Notes under the pieces: model-generated
Told to the model about the DNA's origin: nothing
The model's database searches: none
What the model saw: only the letters and a program-made list of their open reading frames with translations
Origin: Pohlia nutans
Lineage: Eukaryota; Streptophyta; Bryopsida; Bryales; Mniaceae
Assembly: GCA_022496805.1 (NCBI GenBank)
Contig: CM040103.1
Location: 2,808,001-2,872,000 of the forward strand
Length of the DNA stretch: 64,000 nt
Direction of reading: 5' to 3'
Made by a program: the position numbers and the translations under genes
Shown: positions 12,414 to 58,615 of the stretch, piece after piece
How positions within the stretch are numbered: position 1 is the stretch's first letter
How the letters are laid out: each line of letters starts with the position of its first letter

Positions 12414-15400
12414 ATGGTGAAGTTCCTGAAGCCCAACAAGGTGGTGGTGCTCTTGCAGGGCCGCTACGCCGGCCGCAAGGCCGTCATCGTCAAGAACTTC
12501 GACGATGGCAGCAAGGAGCGCCCTTACGGCCACGCCATCGTCTGCGGTATCGCCAAGTACCCCCGCAAGGTACCAAACCCTAAACCCTCTCTACATGTCC
12601 TTTCAATCTTACTCCCTCCGGCCCAAAGTTATTTTCATGTTTGAAAGTCATGTTTGAAAGTGCATTTTTAAGTAGGTCATATTGTGAGAAACATGATTAA
12701 AAAAGGTTCCAAATTATTTCACTAGAATGATTGAAGAACATTGCATGTGTTCATTTCAACCTACATAAAATTAGCCACAAGCAAGGTACCACACTTCCCT
12801 AAACCCTAAACCCTCTCTACATGTCCTTTAAATCTTACTCACTCCGTCCCAAAGTTATTTTCATGTTTGAAAGTTATGTTTGAAAGCGCTTTTTTAAGTA
12901 GGTCATATTGTAAGAAGCATGATTAAAAAAGGTTCCAAATTATGTCACTAGAATGATTGAAGAACATTGCATGTGTGCATTGCAACCTAAATAAAATTAG
13001 CCACAAGGAAGTGTTTTTTGACCTACTTAAAAAAGCACTTCAAACATGACTTTCAAACATGACAATAACTTTGGGACGACGGAGGGAGTAGTTTAGACAG
13101 ATTGCGGTTTCCGGGTGAATTTGACAGAGGATAGTGTTCGTACCTCTTTGCGTATTTCAGGTTGATACTCAGAGAATGTCATAGTTCGTGTTCTAACTCA
13201 ATGAACTATGACATTTAAAACGCTTTTTTTTTTTTCCCCAAAAAACCGTCTCAACAGTTTATTTACATTTTTTAATAGTATACTGGATGCCCCATATAAC
13301 AACGCTTTTAAACTGTTCACGAAAATCCAGGACTGGCATTGAATTAGAAGCTTTCAATGAACACCTGTTGGAGATACTCAGTGAATGTCATAGTCTGTGT
13401 TCTAACTCAACGCTTTTTTTTTTCCCCCAAAAAAGCCGGAGATAATCAGTGAATGTCATAGTCCGTGTTTTCTACTCAACGCTTTTTTTTTCCCTCAAAA
13501 AAGCCGTCTCAACAGTTTATTTACATTTTTTGATAGTATAGTGGATGCCCCATAAACCAACGCTTTTTAAGCTTTTCACGTAAATCTAATACTGGTATTG
13601 AATTAGAAGCTTTCAATGAATACCTGTTGGAGATATTGGTGGTTTATAGTGCACGTTGGTTATTGGGTCATCCACCTTAATATGTAGCTTTTGTGTCACT
13701 CTCATTGTTTGAAATGGACAGGGTTCACGTTTGGAGTATTCAATATAGTAAAATGTTGCAAACAATAAATACAGAAGTCAGAATCTACGGGGTTTGTATG
13801 GAGAGAACTTGTACCAGAGGGGTTGGTGTCCCCTGAGTAGTGAGCAGATTTTTAGGTTTTCAAGATGAATTACTTTTTGTTTGCTACGACGAGGTGCAGA
13901 TAATATTTTTAGGGTTTCGAATTTGGGTTGTGAGTGCGCAATATGGAATGATCAGGTGTTGCTTAATTTGAAATGGAATCTTTCTGTAACATAACCTGCA
14001 TCCGAGATTTATTATTTCGAGTTGAGCTGAGAATAACACGACCTTGGCTCCTCAGGAAACTTGCTTTAGTTGATAGATGTGAGTTCTTATTTTTTTTGTG
14101 GAAATTTGAACGTCAAAGAAGAACTCAAGGCATGCAAATTAGAGGACGTCTGCATGGTCAAGTTTGAAAAAATACAATTGAATTTACTGTTTTAACATTG
14201 ATCTTTATGTATCTGAATACAGGTGATCAAGAAGGCGTCACAGAAGACCATTGCCAAGCGCTCCAGGCTGAAAGCTTTCACGAAAGTGGTGAATTACAAC
14301 CACATCATGCCCACCAGGTACCTGTCACCGCAAAGTTTCTCAAGAGTTTTTATGTCCGTGAGTCTGAATTCGGCTGTTGTTACGTACATTCCAATCTACT
14401 GCACTTTCCAATCTGAGCTTTGAGTTTATAGTTGTGCCTTCATTTAATCCCAGCCTTACGTGACATGTTTGTCTGATTCATGGGAGGCCTAAAGAAAACT
14501 GGAAGTTTCGCTGACAACACCCTTACTAATGGGTGCACTCTGATAGTAGCTTCTCAGACAGCCTATTTGTATCGTCGGTAATGATTTTACGAGTTTTCTT
14601 TTACTTGATAGTAAGGTAGAGGGCTCCAAAACCAACAGGGTTCTAATTTCAACATAATCTAGACCATTTATTTTAGAACAAAAATCTAGGCACATCATAG
14701 AGCTCTTATTGAATGTTGGACCAAAATGATAAGCTATCTATGATCTTCCTAGATTTAGGTTCTAGGATGATTACTGTGCCTAGATTCTATTGAAATTAGA
14801 ACCCTGTTGGTTTTGGAGCCCTCTACCTTATATTCAATTTGTAGTGAAGGGTTTGCTGAGACGCTTAGTTTGATCATCATGGTTTCTAGTCCACTGCAAA
14901 ACACAGCTTTTCCTTCACACAAGGAAGTTGCTGCGAGTCTTTCGCCTAAAGTATGTGTGTTTTAGTTGGGATTTTTCATTTGCAGCTGAAAATTTATTAG
15001 GAGATCTAGCGTATGAGAGCTCAAAGTTCCAATGTTTACATGTTGCAGGTACACTTTGGACGTTGATTTGAAGTCCACTGTGACTGCCGAGAAATTGGAG
15101 TCCACTGCCAGCCGTGTAGAAGCCAGAAAGGTATTTAATTGTTCACCACTCCTACCTTTGGTTACTTGTGTATGGGATTTCAGTATTATTTTTGTGGCAC
15201 GTGAAATTTGGTTGTTCCATGTAAGACGAGTACTTAACCCTTAAACGTTAAAACGTGCCTTGGCGACCAGTAGAATACAGTGTTTTTTGGTTGTATTTGG
15301 AATGTATCCTCACCTTTAATGGGTTAGAGTTCAAAAAAAAAAAGTTGAAATCTAAATCAATGTGGTTTTAGTGAGCTATTGAGATCTCAATTTAGAGTTT

Positions 15401-20662: not shown

Positions 20663-21109
20663 CTATTTCCTACCCATGCCTACAAATAAACCATTTTTAA
20701 AATCAAATGTTATATGCTTAAATCCATCATCAAATTGAGGTTTTTTAGTTTGTTCATGAACGTTGTGGTTTTTATTCTTTATGATGAAGTCTCGCAATCT
20801 TTGTGCCTTATGTTGTGCCTTACGTTGTGCCTTCAATCTTCGTTCTTTTTTCACTTGCTGTAATTCATCATATGAAGCTCGGGCATTTTTGTCGCTAAGT
20901 ATGTTATATGCCTTTTGTAATTTTTGAAATTCTTTAGTTGCCATTAAAGGATTGTCTCTAAACTTGTCAGGATGAATTTCCAAAGCCCGTTTGTAATATG
21001 CTCTTCGAATATCAATATTTGTAACATGTGGTCCACTATGTTTCAATTCCAATACAGTATACAAATCTTCGTCCTCTGTCGGGTCCTCTATTTTTGTTTG
21101 GCTTGCCAT
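20663..21109 (-). CDS. J-domain protein, intronless, 148 aa (DNAJC17/Cwf23-like)
   Basis: The single open frame begins MASQTKIEDPTEDEDLYTVL. A J domain spans about residues 15-81, with the invariant HPD tripeptide in EIHPDKF and helix III/IV residues through ASYDEL. A Lys/Arg-rich helix of about 30 residues follows (KKERRLKAQRKAQHKAQRL), which resembles the segment after the J domain of spliceosomal J proteins of the DNAJC17/Cwf23 type; those also carry an RRM, which is absent here. J domains stimulate Hsp70 ATPase activity. The tail ends KNGLFVGMGRK, with no signal peptide or CaaX box. It is the only intronless gene here and lies in AT-rich, repeat-filled DNA, so it may be a retrocopy. The J domain is certain, the subfamily tentative. 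Confidence 0.8.
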   Translation of the reverse strand: MASQTKIEDPTEDEDLYTVLELKHSGPHVTNIDIRRAYYKRALEIHPDKFRDNPLMATKEFQKLQKAYNILSDKNARASYDELQQVKKERRLKAQRKAQHKAQRLRDFIIKNKNHNVHEQTKKPQFDDGFKHITFDFKNGLFVGMGRK

Positions 21110-22199
21110 ATTGAGAAAATATTCTATTAATTTTTGAATGCTACAAATATGAAAACTGCAAAATTATCAAAAAGAAGTCAAAATGAAGAATCTAATAAGT
21201 AAATATCTTGTATGATGGTTTAATAATAATCATTAAATGTTTGTTGGTTGTATAAACATATTTGTTATATTTTAATTGTATATTTTGTTTGTTAGCTTCA
21301 CGGTCTTGTATTTTATTTTTTGTACATTTTACTTTCTTGAACTTTTACTTTATCTTTTAAATTATCAAGTTTACTTTAATTTTACTTTATCTTTTAAATT
21401 ATCAAGTTTACTTTACTTTTACTTTCAAGCATAGTTTGAATGCACAAACTAACTTTTGGAACCAACGCTTTTAATCCTACAATAAACATTTTTATTATTC
21501 ACTTGGCACATGGTGAACATGGGCCTAGAAGCTGTTTGAAAGTGATGCCATTCAAAATTAGTTAAATATAAACTATTAAATATGAATAATTAAATATAAA
21601 ATTTAAATGAGTTTATTAAAAAATGAAGATAACATGTTTTTATTTTTTAAATATAATTAATTCATATAAAATGAAGAACCCAAGGCATGAAATTTGACAA
21701 ATAAAGTAGCCAATAAAAATAAAATAAAATAAAATAAAATAAATAAATATATATATATATATAATGAATTTTTGAGTGAATTTTAATCATTGAATTTTAT
21801 TTTTTTAAAGTTTAAAGAGCTATAGAAAAGTCTTTTTAACATTGCAAAGTTTTGAACCTCACCAAAAAAAATTATCAATTTTTGTACAAAAAAAATATTG
21901 ATTTATTGATGGTGCAGAACATCAATCAACTTCATATCTCAAAAGATGCTAAGTATTCAATTTAAAGGATTTTCTAAATTTTAATTATATATATATATAT
22001 TATTGTGCACAAAATTTATTAAAATGTTTTAAAAGCCATAAATTTGGTTTATGTTTGTAAAAGAATTTTTAAAATAATACTAACATTTTTGTTCATCATT
22101 TGTCAAAGTTAAAACTTCACTCAAAATTTTGTTCTTTACATTCCAAAGTTCTAAAGAATTTTGAGTTGTTATAAAATAGACAGACATTATTTCAGCCCT

Positions 22200-49739: not shown

Positions 49740-52690
49740 AAAAATAATTTCGGAGTGCTTAGGGAAAAAATTGGCTGCTCGGAGAAAAGACAACTATCCG
49801 ATCGAATTACTATGCAACCCAAACCATGGTGGAGCCCACAATCATGAAACCATGCTCCATCGTAGGTTGCCGAGTTCGAACTGTGGATCTCTTATCTCCA
49901 AACCTTGGCATACAAGCCTTGATGCAAGTCAAATTTTCTTTCTAAACATTATGAATGAATGTAACCATTTGCAAATTTTCTGCCATGTAAAAACAAAATT
50001 CCAATTCTTTTTTTCACTTCACCATGCAGGATTTTTATTGTATCTAAAATTTCCCAAAAATTTGAATTTTTTTTGGGCAAAAATTGCAAAGGCTGTGAGC
50101 TGTTTTTTATTTTTTGGTGGACTTTTGATGTTTTGAGAAATGTAAAAAAGCTTCTTTTCCAAAAAAAAATTGCACCTCATCATTCAAGAAATTTTCTATA
50201 ATTGGAAAGAATTTTTTTTAATTGAATTTTTATTTGTGCTCAAATTGGGAAGGTCAAATTGAGTTTGAAGAAAGTTTGATTTCAAACTCAATTTAACCCA
50301 TACTGCTTTGAGAGATTATTTTTAGATCAATGCCCCCTTTTATGAGTTGCCCAAGACTAAAACATTAAAAATTTGTTGGAATTATAATTATTTTCTAATA
50401 GGAAATCAAGTATAATTTTGAATCCAATTTGAATCATGACAATTCAAGTTAAACTCCACGAAGAAGAACTTTTTTAAAAACACATTTTTGTGTGTTACAA
50501 TTTTTTTTGTTTCAAAAAATTAATGTTCTTCCTAGTACATCTATTTTGTTTTTCTTCTATGACGAAAAGTACAATTATAATCAGTAATACCAAATTTTGA
50601 ATCCTAAAATAATAAAAATGTAATTTTATTGAATTCTAATGTTAATTGCTTCAAAATTCTATAATGAAGATCTAAAAATATTTTGGAAACTTAGATTGTA
50701 AGGATATTTTAAAGAAGATTCTAAGATTATTCTTGAAGATTCCAAAATATTAATATAAACTATTTTGAAAAATGCTAGAAGATTCCAAAATATTCCATTT
50801 TGCAATATTAAAATATTTTAAAAACATTCTATCAAATATTTTTTTGAAATTTTCCCAAGGTTGGCGTTTATGTCCAAATCATTATTACTGTGATCAAATA
50901 TATGGTCTTCATTTGTAGTTCTTTTTCAGCAAAGCTCATTTTCTTCATAAAAGAGTTGTCCATTCTCAAAAATCACACTTGACTTTCTAATTATCTCAAT
51001 GTAAAGTTTGGCTTCTAAGACCTTCTGAATGGTTGTTATAAATGAGTTGGTACTCATGGTTCGTTTTTCATTTGATGGAAACAAACATTTTTTGCTTCGA
51101 TCCAAGATTCAATTTTGTTTTCAATCTCATACCGGTTTACCACTATCCATCTATTTTCAATACTATTACAATGTGTCCATTGCGATTTCGAAACCCTAAA
51201 AAGCCACTTTTCTTTCAAATGAGGTAGAATGAATCTGACAACCCGGGTTTCTATAGAGCTCTCGCGGTTGGATGCCTCTTCATCTTAGGTCGCTCCTTGC
51301 GTCAAGATACTCGATGTGTCTAATAGTTTGTTGACTAAGTTTTTTAGTTCTTGAATCTTCCCGGGTTCTAAAGGTAGGCTACAGACTTTAGCTCCAATAA
51401 ATTGTAGACAAGCCTCATTTATAAATGTTTTTTTTTTTTTTTTTTTTTTTTTTTCCAGCTAGTCGATTGTTGTCCATTTGAATCCTTTTATGATTTGATC
51501 GCTTAACTGAGCGTTTTTTGAAGTGCATCTACATCATGAATTTCAGACCCCACTGATTCTGCACGATTTCAGTGCGTTCATCGTTAAACACTGATTCCGC
51601 ACGTCATACGTGCATTCATAAGTGTCGTTATGGTACGGAAGTGACATGCATTACTAAGATGTCGATGCAGTGTCTTTTCAATGATTATCAAAAAAGTGTT
51701 GTTTCTGCACGAAAGTCGTGCTTGACGAAATCCGTGCGTTAATCGTGTATCTACATTACATGGCTAATAAGACACAGATAATATGTGATTGCTTTGAATG
51801 CAGATTTAGTATCGTATACGTATCATATCAACGCCTTTTATTACATTCGTGCGATTTCAGCATCTATCAGAATGCAAATTATTTTCGTACGACATCTGTG
51901 TACAATATTTTAATAATTTTTGGAATCTTTTGGAATCTTTTGGAATCTTTGAAAATATTTTATATTATTTTGGAATATGTTGGAATATTCCAAAATATTC
52001 TTTAAATTATACTTACGGTTTATTTTCCCAAAACATTTTAGATCTCCATTTATAGAGTTTAGAAGCAATGCCCATTAAAATTTCAAAGAAATAACATTTT
52101 ATATTTTTAGTATTCAAATTTGGTATTATTGGTTATCATTGTACTTTTCATTATAGGAGCAAAAAAAAATAGCTCACAACCACCACGATTTTGGCAAAAA
52201 ATTAAAAAATTAAAAATATTATGAAAAAAATCCTAGATATAGAAAAAGTCCTGCATAATGTAGTACCCCAAAAAAATTGGAAAAAAAGTTTTTTTCACAT
52301 AGTTAAAAACATTCAAAATCCGCTGAAAAAAAAACAGCTCACAGCCATGATCTGCCATCACAATTTTGGCCAAAAAAAAAAAACTCAAAATATTCTGAAA
52401 AAATTTGTAGATGTAGGAAAAGCCTTGCATGTTGTAGTGCAAAAAAAAATTGAAAAAAGAATTATAGACACATGGCAAAAAATTGCCAATGGTTTCATTA
52501 TTTTATAATTACCAAAAGAGTTCCATTCTATGCATGAAGAGTTTGAGGTGGTTTGGTGGTTTGGAGCTTGGTTGGCAACCGGAAGGTCGTGAGTTCAAAT
52601 CCCACCATCAGCAATAGAGCTTGGGAAGCCATGGCGGGCCCCACCGTGGGTTCGGGCAATTTCCGTGTAGTTGAAGTGGGTAGCGAGGAA
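49740..52690. repeat. Large inverted pair: 49,740-50,830 versus 51,900-52,690
   Basis: The left part (CCATGGTGGAGCCC; TGTGAGCTGTTTTTTATT; AAAGTACAATTATAATCA) finds inverted counterparts in the right part (GGGCCCCACCGTGG; AAAAAACAGCTCACAG; GGTTATCATTGTACTTTT). The pair is diverged. The right copy ends with a tRNA-like head: GGTTTGGTGGTTTGGAGC at about 52,550 and GAGTTCAAATCCC at about 52,591. Confidence 0.5.
50831..51372 (+). repeat. Left arm of a ~540-bp inverted repeat
   Basis: It is the reverse complement of 55,502-56,043 over its length with few differences. Shared phrases include TTTCCCAAGGTTGGCGTTTA, CTCGCGGTTGGATGCCTCTT and GACTAAGTTTTTTAGTTCTT. The match stops just after TTCCCGGGTT. 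It bounds the decayed replication-gene block. Confidence 0.9.
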
Positions 52691-53093
52691 AATAATTACT
52701 TTATATTTTTTAATTATTTTATTTTATTTTATATTTTTTAATAATATTATTTTGATCAAATTTAGATATAGAAAGAAAATAAAATCTAGATATAGAAAAG
52801 ATGATGTCGCTCAAAAAACGCACTGAATCAGTGTAGTTTTAAAGACGATTAAAACACAACATTTGACGACTATAAAAAGTGCTAAATTCATACGTTTTCA
52901 ATAGATGTATCAATCGTGTCGAATCAGTACTATATCCGCTTGTACGAACATCGTGTCATATCAGTGTAGTTGCGATGAATGACGCAACGATGCAGAATCA
53001 GTGCGAAAACTGTACGAACCCTTGAAATATCGAAAATCGCACTGAAATCGTGCAGAATCAGTGGGGTCCAAAATTCCTGATGTAGGCAGGGCA
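51524..53093. mobile_element. 1.57-kb terminal-inverted-repeat element
   Basis: The inverted ends include GACCCCACTGATTCTGCACG and its complement near 53,051-53,070, with CATCTACATCA against TGATGTAG. It contains one copy of the 49,740-50,830 repeat and carries no transposase-like frame. It lies between the left arm and the primase-like remnant. Confidence 0.65.
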
Positions 53094-53099
53094 TTAAAG

Positions 53100-55190
53100 G
53101 TTCTAGGGGCGTAATTCAAGTCTTTCAAGAGCATCTAGTAAACGTGCTTTCTGTTCGGACCCATGATAATTATACGTTTTGAACTTTGTGTGTTTTTAAA
53201 CACTTCAATAGGCATTCCGCATAGACTTAGGCATGCTTAGCTTGCATTGAAGACTTGAGACAGAAAGTGTAATCCTTTACGCGGGGTGGTTTTGACCACC
53301 CAATTGAATTTGTCATTATGTGCCATCCCAACAAGGTAATTTAAAACGGCGTGGGTGTGTTTTGGGTTATCAACGACAATGATCACCACGTTCACCGGAA
53401 GCGTTTTGGTCTCAACGGCAATTGTATTAAAGTCGTCTTTAAATTATAATTGACTGTCTTGGATTAGGATCTCTAGAATTTTGAGCGTTAACTGGGTCCC
53501 GTCTCGCATCACCCGTCGTTTCTCTTGTTGAAAATAAAGCTCCACTCCATTTGTCAAAAGATCTCGTAGTATGTTATACTTTGTTATCTGATGCCCTTTG
53601 TCATCAGTAACAGTGTGTTCTTGCTTGATTTGGCCTTGTGATGTTTATCCCCCAATGTTGTAAACGTTATTTGGATCAAAATAGTAATGACTACAGTGCG
53701 TTGTGTGTCGTTTTTCCAATGGTTTCATGGTTGAAAATGTCCTTAGAGAATATGAATTTTGTATGAGTTCTTTGTCTGTAAATGGTTTAGACAAATGAGT
53801 CGTAAAGGGTTCTTCGGTAATTGAAGGAAAACTTGGTTCAGGTCTTGTCAATCACACGAAAGAGAGCAATCACAAACAATTCATCGCTTGTTTCGCCGTG
53901 TTTTTTTTTTTGTTTTTTTTCCATTATTGGTCATTGCTTTTTCATCAAATGCTAGCTTTTGTAGCATTTTGAGCGCTCTTGAAGCTAATATTTGATGAAG
54001 ATTGTTCAAATCCTTGTCAATTTGGACCTCGTCGTCAGTTCCAGATTAAAAAAGTACGTCTTTGTGTTTATTTTTTTCACTAGTATAGGTAATGTTTTAT
54101 CTTGGAAACTTAATTTTAACAAACTCAAAAAACAATATTTGTTAAGTACGGGCAATTTTTTTAAAATCATACAAGCACGGTAATAGGAATAATTATCTTC
54201 AAATGACTTTTGAACAACCTCTTTGGAATCTAAATTGTTTTGGGTCCACTCCTGGGCGGCTGGCTCCAATACTTCTTGACAATGCTCAAACAGAGGGGGG
54301 GGGGGGGGGTTGCCACCTTCGCCATCGGCGCTAATTCTAGGAGAAGATACTCTCGGTTCAAGATTTTAAAGGTTTTAAAATTCATATAATTATCTTGTTT
54401 TATTTTTTCATGGCTATTTTGGAGTCCACGTCAATTGACATCGAATCTTAACTATTTTCAATCCATTATATATACCTTGCCCCACTCGGCGGCAAACAAA
54501 AATGCCATGCGCTCGAATTGCATGTTAAGTCCATGAGTAAGATGAGGACTTTGAAGCTCTGGACTGCTTTTTAGTGATTTAGTCATTGGTGTGGCATACT
54601 CAGGTTCTACAGCTATAGAGGACGCAAGTGAAATTCTGAGACTCTTTTGTGAAATCTCGGAGTTTAGTTGATCGTCCAAAACCAAGGATAAGGGTTTGAC
54701 TTTAGGTTTATAGTAAAAACCGCAGTCGGGCTCGACTCGGGTAGATGATTCCCAATCCTCTTGCGAGGGCTAGATTAATTTATGAGCCCTTGCTTGGTTT
54801 TGTGTTTTTATGGCATTGTTGTATCTTTGCGCTTAGCCAAGAGCTCCTAATTTTGAACACTTACAACCCTATAAACTATTGTTTGCGCAAAATTTAGGAT
54901 CGTATCGGCACTACAGAGGTCACCATCTTGATCCCAATTTCGTGGAGAGGGTTCAAAGAGTCGACTCGGATCCAAGGTGAACGTTAATGAAAAGCCCCAT
55001 TCGCCCATACTTGAACCCCTTTAAATATGACTTGTATCCCGAGTAAAGAGCTTGTCTGCGGGGATATATAAGGGCGCGGCTAAAGTAATTTGGTCCGAAG
55101 AATCGATTAAACGTTCAACATGATAATCAGTTAAAAGATTTTCAATTAGATTTTTTGTACTTTAACTGTAGAATTGTGTAGAATAGTAGG
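53100..55190 (-). pseudogene. Decayed AEP-type primase-polymerase (replicon remnant)
   Basis: Read on the minus strand from about 55,190 downward, coding-like text continues through several frames broken by stops and frameshifts; open pieces lie at 54,685-54,458, 54,269-54,006 and 53,851-53,645. Near its end three blocks follow in the order seen in archaeo-eukaryotic primase (PrimPol) domains: a hydrophobic strand ending in an acidic site (VVIIVVDNPKH, about 53,389-53,358), a Thr-Pro-rich His motif (KTTPRKGLH, about 53,293-53,267) and a GPNRK-type loop (53,161-53,138). In live enzymes these form the active site; here the second acidic residue of motif I reads Asn. Such domains are often fused to SF3 helicases in plasmids and viruses, and a helicase remnant lies at 56,110-56,855. 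It is not functional as it stands. The AEP call rests on motif order, not on a search. Confidence 0.55.
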
Positions 55191-55501
55191 TGGGGGTAAG
55201 CGTGGAGTAGGTAGTTTCAAACAAGACTTATCTAGAAAATCCAAACCGGAATTAGAATGGATTGGGTAAAACCTGCTGAAAGACGCAACCAATAGCACAT
55301 ATGGGCCCTTTCAGATTCTAGAGGGCCGCAGGAAACAAAGGAAGCGCCAAGCAATCCAATGAAAAGAACTACTACAAGAGTTAGGGCTTTTAGCTTTTAA
55401 CAGATTCTATACAAAAAAGGGTTGTGGACGTTAGAAAAAAATACCTGGTTCTGAAGAGGCTAGCGCTCTGGCCCGTGAAAATGATCTCTAGAATCTTTTG
55501 A

Positions 55502-56043
55502 ACCCGGGAAGATTCAAGAACTAAAAAACTTAGTCAACAAACTATTACACACATTGAGTACCTTGACGCGAGGAGTGACCTAAGATGAAGAGGCATCCAA
55601 CCGCGAGAGCTCCATAGAAACCCAGGTTGTCAGACTCATTCTACCTCATTTGAAAGAAAAGTGGCTTTTTAGGGTTTCGAAATCGCAATGGACACATTAT
55701 AACAGTATTGAAAATAGATGATAGATGGATAGTGGCAAACCGTTATGAGATTGAAAACAAAATTGAATCTTGGATCGAAGCAAAAAATGTTTGTTTCCAT
55801 CAAATGAAAAACGAACCATGAGTACCAGCTCATTTATGACAACCATTCAGAAGGTCTTAGAAGCCAAGCTTTACATTGAGATAATTAGAAAGCCAAGCCT
55901 GATTTTTGAGAATATACAACTCTTTTATGAAGGAAACGAACTTTGCTTAAAAAGAACCACAAATGAGACCATATATTTGATCACAGTAATATCAATTTAG
56001 ACATAAACGCCAACCTTGGGAAAATTTCAAAAAAAAAATTGAT
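55502..56043 (+). repeat. Right arm of the ~540-bp inverted repeat
   Basis: It pairs with 50,831-51,372. An open frame at 55,770-56,000 within it has helical, charged text; the phrase FENIQLFYEGNELCLKRTTN could be part of the linker region of a primase-helicase, but this is weak. The arm leads directly into the SF3 helicase remnant. Confidence 0.85.
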
Positions 56044-56109
56044 GGAACCTCAAGAAGATAAATAGCCACGAGGCAATTGGGGTGGAATGAAAGAATAGAG
56101 ACCGTACGG

Positions 56110-56855
56110 AAGAAGTATTTTTGGAGACTGTAATTATTACGGGGAATAAGATTTGGCAATGAGATGAAGACACATCAGGCTATCGACGGAGAGTTATACA
56201 AACAGATAGGGTTGCACCTGAAATGGATCCAACATTGGGTGAGAAACTCAAAGCAGAGATTTCTGGCCTGCTTGTATGGGCACTCGAGGTTTTGGATCAA
56301 CTAACTCAACTGAGTGGGCAGGACTAGGAGATCAACAAAGTGTCCACATGAGAAGGTTTAGATCTATTTGGATTAAAGGAATGACTAAGCACGAGCCTTT
56401 ATATAAGCGCCAAAGAAAACACGGCTTTAGCCGCAACTACACAACCTAAGCCACAAAGTCTATATGAATTTTGTTTGAATCACGCGGAACATTATAATTT
56501 AGAAAAAATTACTTCTAAAAAATTTGGAGGAATGCTCGTTGAATATCTAAAGGGCCTTAGATATAAACAGGTAGCGCCCCAACAAAAAGAAAATGGGCAA
56601 TTTATAAAAGGGATAACTCTTACTAAAGGCAAAGGTACCACACCTATTAAAAGAACCTCATTGCCGATCCTAGCTTTACTAAAGACAATTGATCCCTGGA
56701 AAGGATTTGAAGACGACTTGATTCAATATAAAATCGATGAAGATGAAAGGTGGTCTAGAGAAGTCAAAGTATCCGAAGAATTAGTAAATCTAAGGGATCC
56801 AGAGGAAGGGGATTTAATAAAAATATTAATTAAAAAAATATGGAGGAGAGCATAA
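56110..56855 (+). pseudogene. SF3 (D5/P4-type) primase-helicase, C-terminal remnant
   Basis: The plus-strand text reads ETVIITGNKIW (about 56,123-56,156), resembling SF3 motif C with its conserved Asn. After one stop comes an acidic turn with an RRR cluster, then GEKLKAEISGLLVWAL (about 56,241-56,287), the characteristic helicase C-terminal element of D5/P4-type primase-helicases (E..G.L.WAL). After a further break, an open frame at 56,475-56,855 starts at a winged-helix-like stretch (ITSKKFGGMLVEYL). Walker A and B are not present: the segment that should hold them lies between the arm (ends 56,043) and 56,110 and is missing. SF3 enzymes are replicative helicases of plasmids, phages and large DNA viruses. 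The stops and the missing ATPase core make this a clear pseudogene. The SF3 call is firmer than the AEP call. Confidence 0.72.
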
Positions 56856-56873
56856 TCATGCATGAAACCTCAG

Positions 56874-56876
<3 letters not shown>

Positions 56877-56925
<49 letters not shown>
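56877..56925 (+). repeat. Poly(A) tract, about 47 bases
   Basis: A nearly uninterrupted A run lies between the helicase and polymerase remnants. Confidence 0.95.
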
Positions 56926-56927
<2 letters not shown>

Positions 56928-57002
56928 GCAATCCCAAAACCAAATAAAAATCCTAGAAGATGCTGAAGGGACAAAAATGAAAAAGCTAAAGCCTCTCCAA
57001 GG

Positions 57003-58615
57003 TTGAACAGAAAAAGACAGAATAGAGCGCATGCGTTTGAAGAGTGGGAAGACTCTTTGCCAGATAATTTGAGCTTACCGAAGAATTTACAAAAATCGAC
57101 GTCATTGACCGATGAACCTTATAGCCTAGCAAAAGAATTTGATCTTGGGATCGCAAAGATAGCGTTGGTACAAAAAAAATTAGAGAAAAGTCTCAAAGGA
57201 AATTACAGAGTATTGTTACACCTCGAATAAAATTAAAGACCCGGAGGATTCCTATTATAAGCGCAAATGTCCTATTAATCTTTTATGGCCAGAAACGTAT
57301 CAAAGCTACGCTAGGCTTCAAGGGTATACCTACTCAACGTGGAAGAAGAGTAGAGGGACGATTGGCTCTGCCAAAGAAAACCTTCGTGAAAAGATATTAG
57401 AAAAGTACAAAAAAGACTGCTTACCAAATGATTGGGTCTTTGTAGAAATTGACATGATGGCTCTCCACGTAGGGATTTTTATTGGTTTATCAAGAAAAGA
57501 ACTAGCACTAATAGACTATGTTTGTTATGTAGCAGATAAATTTTGGAAAGAGGCTATGAAAATATGCGGTGATTCCATAAAAAAAAGGCATTAAAACAAA
57601 TTCTTTATTCAGGTTTAAACGGAGCAAAGTGTTTTTCAAAAGTATCGCTCAATAGAACACTAAAGAAAGAAGTATGACAAAAGAAGAGTTAGACAAAAAA
57701 AATAGAACAAGCCAAAGAGAACAAGCTACTATTTCAAGATTTGGTCGGCAAGAAAAAAAAAATCTATTTGTTGAATAGGGTAGAATCCTACAGAGGCAAA
57801 GTAGAAGAAATAAAGTAGCAAAAAAGAAGAAGTAGATACTATGAAGGGTTAATGAGTCTATAGTATTAGCATCCCATAAAGTCATATTTTTAGCCTACTT
57901 AGTGGAAGTAATGATGACAAATAGGTTGGGGATACCGATCAGCTTAGAACACGACAAACACGCAATTCGCTATTTACGCACTTGGCCATATAATCATGCA
58001 CTTGGTCCCCGGAAGCATTAAAAATATTGTCGTAAAAATTTCTCTAAAAAACAACCATTTTTGTCGTTCTTTTTTTTTTCTTTTTTTTTTCTTTTTTTTT
58101 TCTTTTTTTGTCTTTGGTGCGGGCGAAGGATTTGCGGCTGCCACAAGAGGAATGAAAAAAAATAGAAGAAAAAGAAGAAGACAAGAAGGAAGACAAGAAG
58201 GAAAATAAATTGAAGACAAGAAAGAAATAAGATAAATGAAACAAGATAAAGAAAAGATAAAAGAAAAAATAAAATAAAAGATAAAGATAAAAGATAAAGA
58301 TAAGAATAAAAATTAAATTAAATAATTGTTTGTTTACAATGAAAGTAATTGTAGAACGACAAAAATGGTTGTTTTTTAGAGAAATTTTTACACAAAAAAT
58401 TTTAAGCAAGATTTGCTCATGAAATGAACGCACTTGACCAAGTGCATAAATAGCGAATTGCGTGTTGACATAGTCTTATATTTATTTAGAAAGGCCAATA
58501 AAGAACGCTTAAATTTGGTATTAAATGAAAAACTAACAAGAATGACTAAGCATGAAAATCCAGATAGAAGAAAAGCGATAAGTAAAAAACACACATACAT
58601 AACAGTTGGATGAAT
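57003..58615 (+). pseudogene. Decayed family-A-like DNA polymerase, split by a MITE
   Basis: Open pieces: 57,003-57,230, about 57,241-57,594 and about 57,600-57,956; the frame then resumes at about 58,467-58,613, where it ends in a stop. Landmarks occur in family-A order: a TIGSAKENLR stretch where active polymerases have the SS.NLQ loop; FVEIDMMALHVGIF (about 57,439-57,480), with the motif A Asp; KQILYSGLNGAK (about 57,594-57,628), like the motif B/O-helix K...YG; and a motif-C-like SLEHD (about 57,941-57,955). Internal frameshifts occur at an A run (57,579-57,586) and near 57,675. A 510-bp MITE separates motif C from the C-terminal part. Family A includes bacterial Pol I, organelle polymerases, many phage enzymes and the transposon-virus polymerases, which pair with SF3 helicases. 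The unusual motif A wording fits a divergent mobile-element lineage better than the plant organelle enzyme. It is not functional as it stands. Confidence 0.6.
57957..58466. mobile_element. Hairpin MITE inserted in the polymerase remnant
   Basis: The ends CACGCAATTCGCTATTTACG and GCATAAATAGCGAATTGCGTG are inverted copies, and AACAACCATTTTTGTCGTTC near the left finds its complement near 58,340. GACA flanks both sides (57,953-57,956 and 58,467-58,470). The T-rich and A-rich open frames inside are low-complexity artefacts. Confidence 0.8.

What the first reader, a model, noticed from the sequence alone, without database searches (positions are those of the whole stretch)
53100..58615. Remnant of a primase-helicase plus family-A polymerase replicon in a plant nuclear window
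Three decayed genes form a coherent DNA-replication module: an AEP-like primase (TPRKGLH and GPNRK blocks), an SF3 helicase C-terminus (VIITGN, then KAEISGLLVWAL) and a family-A-like polymerase with motif A, B and C look-alikes (EIDMMALH, KQILYSGLNGA, LEHD). Seen directly: the motifs, their order and the breaks. Known: AEP-SF3 fusions and SF3 plus family-A-like (including transposon-virus type) polymerases occur in plasmids, phages, virophage-like and Polinton-like elements. Inferred: this is the relic of a self-replicating element, possibly viral, plasmid or organellar-mobile in origin. No capsid, integrase or packaging ATPase was recognised.
Basis: partly seen in the sequence, partly recalled or inferred. 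Interest (0 to 1): 0.92.

Follow-up and report, generated by a model that had tools for sequence, protein, structure and literature searches.

The report
Broken replication genes of mobile element
This stretch of a probably plant nuclear genome holds the broken remains of the DNA-copying genes (a helicase, probably a polymerase and perhaps a primase) of an old plasmid-like or virus-like element that also left pieces on other chromosomes.

Summary
The SF3 helicase tail is real. A profile from eight D5/P4-type phage proteins not chosen with the window piece ranks 56163-56324 first of 2100 window ORFs (E=0.032). It scores the C5 counterpart 5.3e-5 and a longer C3 ORF 4.4e-8. A profile partly chosen with the piece gives 9.7e-7.

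The polymerase is probably a TV-Pol (transposon-virus polymerase): motif-B piece 57573-57674 ranks first of 2100 with three overlapping TV-Pol profiles (E 0.01-0.14). The motif-A piece ranks only 116 and 451. The AEP piece is plausible, unproven: rank 4 in the window (E=4.8), first of 325 ORFs at C5 (E=0.0041). A 510-bp MITE-like insert cuts the polymerase beside its 'LEHD'.

Related DNA lies on six other contigs. C5 and C3 carry rearranged copies with helicase matches; C16, C15, C2 and C1 carry fragments. The window, C5 and C3 copies are broken. Helicase followed by TV-Pol recalls a gene pair in the Nephroselmis chloroplast (PMC2579912). Viral, plasmid or organellar origin stays open; capsid genes were not searched for systematically.

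The parts
56100..56324 (+). tail of a D5/P4-type SF3 helicase (broken by stops)
   Evidence: piece 56163-56324:
56385..56855 (+). downstream open piece, possible winged-helix end of the same helicase
   Evidence: rank 2, E=0.37; rank 311 with the other profile; recurs in C5, C3, C16, C15
57184..57594 (+). polymerase piece with motif-A look-alike
   Evidence: motif seen; profile rank 116 and 451 of 2100; C5 counterpart of its start E=6.5e-11
57573..57674 (+). TV-Pol motif B piece, another frame
   Evidence: rank 1 of 2100, E 0.14, 0.032, 0.01
57944..57958 (+). motif-C look-alike (LEHD), its end overlapping the insert's first bases
53138..53443 (-). AEP (Prim-Pol)-like pieces
   Evidence: ranks 4 and 8 of 2100, successive profile parts; C5 counterpart E=0.0041
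57957..58466 (.). MITE-like insertion with inverted arms, GACA on both sides; not part of the element
   Evidence: further copies at C5
55495..56047 (.). dispersed repeat beside the helicase, inverted copy at 50827-51373 (92.6%)

Best explanation
The region is one of several decayed nuclear copies of an old mobile replicon (plasmid-like or small-virus-like) that carried its own replication genes: a D5/P4-type SF3 helicase, a separate TV-Pol polymerase just downstream, and perhaps an AEP primase. In life the primase (AEP, or TV-Pol itself, for which priming has been predicted) would make primers, the helicase would open the DNA, and TV-Pol would copy it. Copies entered the nuclear genome long ago, were duplicated or spread, rearranged and hit by later repeats; the window, C5 and C3 copies are broken. 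Shown: helicase homology, related DNA at several places, decay, order helicase then polymerase. Inferred: TV-Pol identity (good), AEP identity (moderate), that they worked together, and origin. I lean to an organellar or cytoplasmic plasmid-like ancestor over a capsid-bearing virus, without direct evidence.
For: SF3. TV-Pol motif B; A+B+C spacing. AEP. Related DNA at ten places on seven contigs, window included; AEP-like, 54-kb and helicase pieces recur at C19, C5 and C3. TV-Pol linked with D5-like helicases in mobile elements, including a chloroplast pair: PMC2579912.
Against: Motif-A piece ranks 116 and 451 of 2100. Winged-helix piece falls to rank 311 with the less biased profile. No relatives in protein or viral-contig searches. 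AEP-like frame has dN/dS 1.06 against C5 and lies on the other strand. No terminal repeats or intact copy seen. Segmental duplication of one scrambled locus could explain the repeats.
Confidence: 0.7

Rival explanations
1. Endogenised polinton-like virus or virophage-like DNA virus (TVpol-helicase and AEP-helicase replicases occur there), of which only replication genes are still recognisable.
For: Such replicases are described in PLVs and virophages (PMC12220804, PMC3671162; passages).
Against: There TVpol lies N-terminal of the helicase in one protein; here the polymerase pieces lie downstream. No capsid gene noticed, though none was searched for by profile across the region. PLVs are said to be absent from land plants.
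Confidence: 0.25
2. Only a helicase relic is real; the polymerase and AEP look-alikes are chance or unrelated decayed DNA.
For: Motif-A piece unsupported; AEP E=4.8 in the window; A+B motifs occur in 28 of 200 shuffles.
Against: Motif B is first of 2100 in each TV-Pol profile; the pieces recur with the helicase at C5.
Confidence: 0.2
3. Decayed host organellar replication genes (family-A polymerase, TWINKLE).
For: Plants have such genes (PMC10557236 and PMC7699545, search listing).
Against: No match to them with the pieces in Pfam, NCBIfam or PDB; the helicase is of the D5/P4 SF3 type, whereas TWINKLE is T7 gp4-like (listing).
Confidence: 0.02

Closest known systems
TV-Pol and D5-like helicase gene pair, Nephroselmis olivacea chloroplast (Iyer et al. 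2008, PMC2579912)
   Same: a TV-Pol gene linked with a D5-like helicase in a presumed mobile element of a green-lineage genome
   Different: that pair is in a plastid; here decayed and nuclear, with a possible AEP nearby; the two were not compared by sequence here
TV-Pols of Microcystis phage Ma-LMM01 and of Polaromonas and Calothrix plasmids
   Same: motif B K-x8-GA, and D and HD motifs at like spacing
   Different: no overall alignable similarity of the motif-A piece by profile
D5/P4-type primase-helicases of phages and plasmids
   Same: helicase tail
   Different: only the tail remains in the window; the Walker A part is absent from the matches
Polinton-like viruses and virophages with TVpol-S3H or AEP-S3H
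   Same: same enzyme families as named in passages of PMC12220804 and PMC3671162
   Different: gene order; no capsid gene noticed
Plant mitochondrial linear plasmids (PMC10583447, passages)
   Same: mobile replicons with copies in plant nuclear genomes
   Different: they carry a protein-primed family-B polymerase; none was found in the 16 pieces sent to Pfam

Membership tests
D5/P4-type SF3 helicase | conserved tail block after the ATPase core | tested here: met
   rank 1 of 2100, E=0.032, 9.7e-7; C3 ORF 4.4e-8
D5/P4-type SF3 helicase | C-terminal winged-helix region | tested here: inconclusive
   E=0.37, rank 2; rank 311
D5/P4-type SF3 helicase | Walker A and B motifs | tested here: not met
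   no profile match before position 149 in the window; the C3 ORF begins at position 106; upstream part lost
TV-Pol | motif B (K-x8-GA) | tested here: met
   rank 1 of 2100
TV-Pol | motif A region | tested here: inconclusive
   D and H present at family spacing, but profile ranks 116 and 451
TV-Pol | motif C HD at family spacing | tested here: inconclusive
   joint set in 1 of 200 shuffles; spacing limits set after seeing the family; next to an insert
TV-Pol | neighbouring D5-like helicase | tested here: met
   helicase pieces end 56855, polymerase pieces from 57184 on, same strand; also collinear at C5
AEP / Prim-Pol | profile match | tested here: inconclusive
   window ranks 4 and 8 of 2100; C5 first of 325, E=0.0041, among 4 profiles and 9 loci
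AEP / Prim-Pol | catalytic D-x-D | tested here: not met
   only one D in the aligned block, whereas reference L040 has VDVDD; may be decay
Polinton-like virus / virophage | capsid proteins and packaging ATPase | not tested
   only 16 selected pieces went to Pfam; no systematic scan
Host organellar PolA (POP) / TWINKLE | match to family-A polymerase or TWINKLE-type helicase profiles | tested here: not met
   pieces are short and decayed, so the test is weak

The most novel reading that the evidence does not exclude
A lineage of replicons with three replication enzymes (AEP, D5-type SF3 helicase and a separate TV-Pol) once lived in this lineage, in its organelles or as a small DNA virus, and left a multi-copy fossil record in the nucleus; AEP and TV-Pol, thought to replace one another, would have stood in one element.
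Probability: 0.35. Interest if true: 0.8.

Novelty: new variant of a known kind. Interest (0 to 1): 0.58.

Why it matters
TV-Pol elements are described from bacteria, phages, virophages and an algal plastid (PMC2579912), and polinton-like viruses are said to be absent from land plants (PMC12220804, passage). A dispersed family of TV-Pol and D5-helicase fossils in a plant nucleus would show that such replicons reached this lineage, and would make it testable whether living relatives persist in plant organelles.

Tried and rejected
Classic PolA: no Pfam hit. PDB searches: only chance-level or no matches. Protein searches with the polymerase and helicase pieces: no hit among 86 and 2091 candidates. 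Five scans of viral contigs with pieces of this genome: no relatives. A genome-contig scan with the Polaromonas TV-Pol: none. A motif-B DNA pattern gave five unrelated stretches. AlphaFold models of two single pieces: pLDDT about 42, not searched. L003 was a chance hit in a transporter-like ORF (by eye). Fern MORFFO: no mention of primase, helicase or plasmid in the 2026 paper's text, so no basis for a link. Leucomyxa plasmid: no DNA polymerase reported. dN/dS as proof of coding: a control stretch was as low in one frame.

Such elements in land-plant nuclei did not turn up in paper searches (open-access papers only, listings partly read); this does not show that none is in print.

Full report
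Setting. The window is C19:2808001-2872000 of a 698-Mb, 332-contig genome.

Helicase. Pfam, NCBIfam and PDB gave nothing of note for the pieces. PHROGs gave DNA primase 6088, E=0.0017, for 56163-56324; tblastn gave a D5-type protein on MT838804, E=2e-3. A profile of nine D5/P4-type proteins puts 56163-56324 first (E=9.7e-7) and 56385-56852 second (E=0.37) of 2100 window ORFs of 20 aa or more, at successive profile parts; the third has E=1.5. But six of the nine (L001, L002, L035-L038) had been found with this very piece, so I made a second profile from eight proteins found otherwise (L039-L041 through the L001 protein; L042-L046 through the L040 N-terminus). With it 56163-56324 is still first of 2100 (E=0.032), while 56385-56852 drops to rank 311; the best hits at C5 and C3 are the counterparts L049 5978-6103 (E=5.3e-5, of 325) and L062 4949-5254 (E=4.4e-8, of 338); nothing notable at C16 or C15. 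PHROG primase families also match the C3 ORF (best E=0.0011). The helicase tail is thus secure, its winged-helix end not.

Polymerase. Family-A profiles do not see it. Iyer et al. 2008 (PMC2579912, main section, parts 1 and 2 of 3) describe TV-Pol: a family-A-like polymerase of mobile elements, linked with D5-like helicases, also as a pair in the Nephroselmis chloroplast. Its member in phage Ma-LMM01 I take to be gp030, beside a transposase gene (the paper names the phage, the gene assignment is mine). Relatives: seven further proteins, a Calothrix plasmid and a Polaromonas plasmid, a second Polaromonas plasmid and a Vibrio phage. The alignment shows invariant D (motif A), K and GA (K-x8-GA, motif B) and nearly invariant HD (motif C). 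With three profiles from overlapping sets of these, 57573-57674 is first of 2100 ORFs (E=0.14, 0.032, 0.01). Against: the motif-A piece 57184-57591 ranks 116 and 451. Motifs A and B at family spacing occur in 28 of 200 shuffles, all three in 1 of 200; the window has one set (shuffles approximate, limits set by me after seeing the family).

Primase. A profile from six phage N-termini (the first, L040, was picked because it resembled the piece by eye, and its own Pfam Prim-Pol score of 21.8 is just under the cut-off of 22.8) puts 53240-53443 fourth (E=4.8) and 53138-53236 eighth (E=5.9) of 2100, at successive profile parts. The C5 counterpart is first of 325, E=0.0041, but four profiles were run on nine loci. 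The frame has few stops (1 against C5, 2 against C3) yet dN/dS 1.06 and 0.43, the lowest of six in neither. So: plausible.

Other copies. DNA 56118-57300 matches ten places, itself included, on seven contigs: C19, C5 (2), C3 (2), C16, C15 (2), C2, C1; the tool calls such counts lower bounds. C5 carries 56118-57298 at 74.7%, a second stretch of 56457-56823 at 83.1%, 54104-54767 and 53085-53326 at 74-75%; its AEP-like part abuts the second helicase stretch, on the opposite strand. C3 carries 53986-55174 (83.8%), helicase parts (82-85%) and 53085-53221 (78%), rearranged. C16 and C15 keep parts of 56668-57030, C2 and C1 about 150 bp (56947-57096), with no profile hit at E 0.3 or better. The recurrence of the three kinds of pieces at C19, C5 and C3 argues for one element, though duplication of an already scrambled locus would look the same.

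Decay. The window, C5 and C3 copies are broken by stops, frame changes or inverted junctions. dN/dS is below 1 in 11 of 11 tblastn-aligned segments (0.17-0.69), but such alignments favour the conserved frame. On blastn alignments against C5 the helicase and polymerase frames are lowest or tied lowest of six (0.41, 0.37, 0.36, 0.20); against C3 the SF3 frame (0.42) is not, and the control stretch 54104-54767 reaches 0.37 in one frame. Weak support for past coding.

Later insertions. A MITE-like insert (my label; inverted arms, more copies at C5) at 57957-58466, GACA on both sides, cuts the polymerase beside its motif-C look-alike. 55495-56047 and 50827-51373 are inverted copies (92.6%) of a repeat also on C1, C2, C3 and C5.

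Mechanism. By established roles of the families: AEP or TV-Pol primes, the SF3 helicase unwinds, TV-Pol extends. PMC2579912 predicts TV-Pol to be primase and polymerase and to replace Prim-Pol, so both in one element would be unusual.

Papers. PMC2579912: two of three parts of its main section. PMC12220804, PMC10583447, PMC4524492, PMC3671162, PMC13000998, PMC11528492, PMC11348598: passages. PMC10061031: abstract and outline. Others: search listings.

Odds: helicase relic 0.95; TV-Pol 0.7; AEP 0.55; one mobile replicon 0.7; origin open.

Noticed in passing
window 57957-58466: MITE-like insert of 510 bp with inverted arms and GACA on both sides; similar stretches at C5 (L049 2525-2897, 3740-4030).
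   Followed up: partly
window 50827-51373 and 55495-56047: Inverted pair of a dispersed repeat, 92.6% alike, also near the pieces on C1, C2, C3 and C5; could have mediated inversion of 51374-55494.
   Followed up: partly
window 14447-14563: Rfam snoR83 (H/ACA snoRNA), 65.6 bits.
   Followed up: no
window 20663-21163 (-): 166-aa ORF that looks like a DnaJ-domain protein by eye; not tested.
   Followed up: no
window 56877-56925: Run of 49 A between the helicase and polymerase pieces.
   Followed up: no
L016 6095-7600, L033 37-1653, L015 from 12314 over the record start: TV-Pol-like genes on Polaromonas and Calothrix plasmids, annotated as Clp-like, hypothetical or, in Calothrix, without a listed gene on that strand.
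   Followed up: partly
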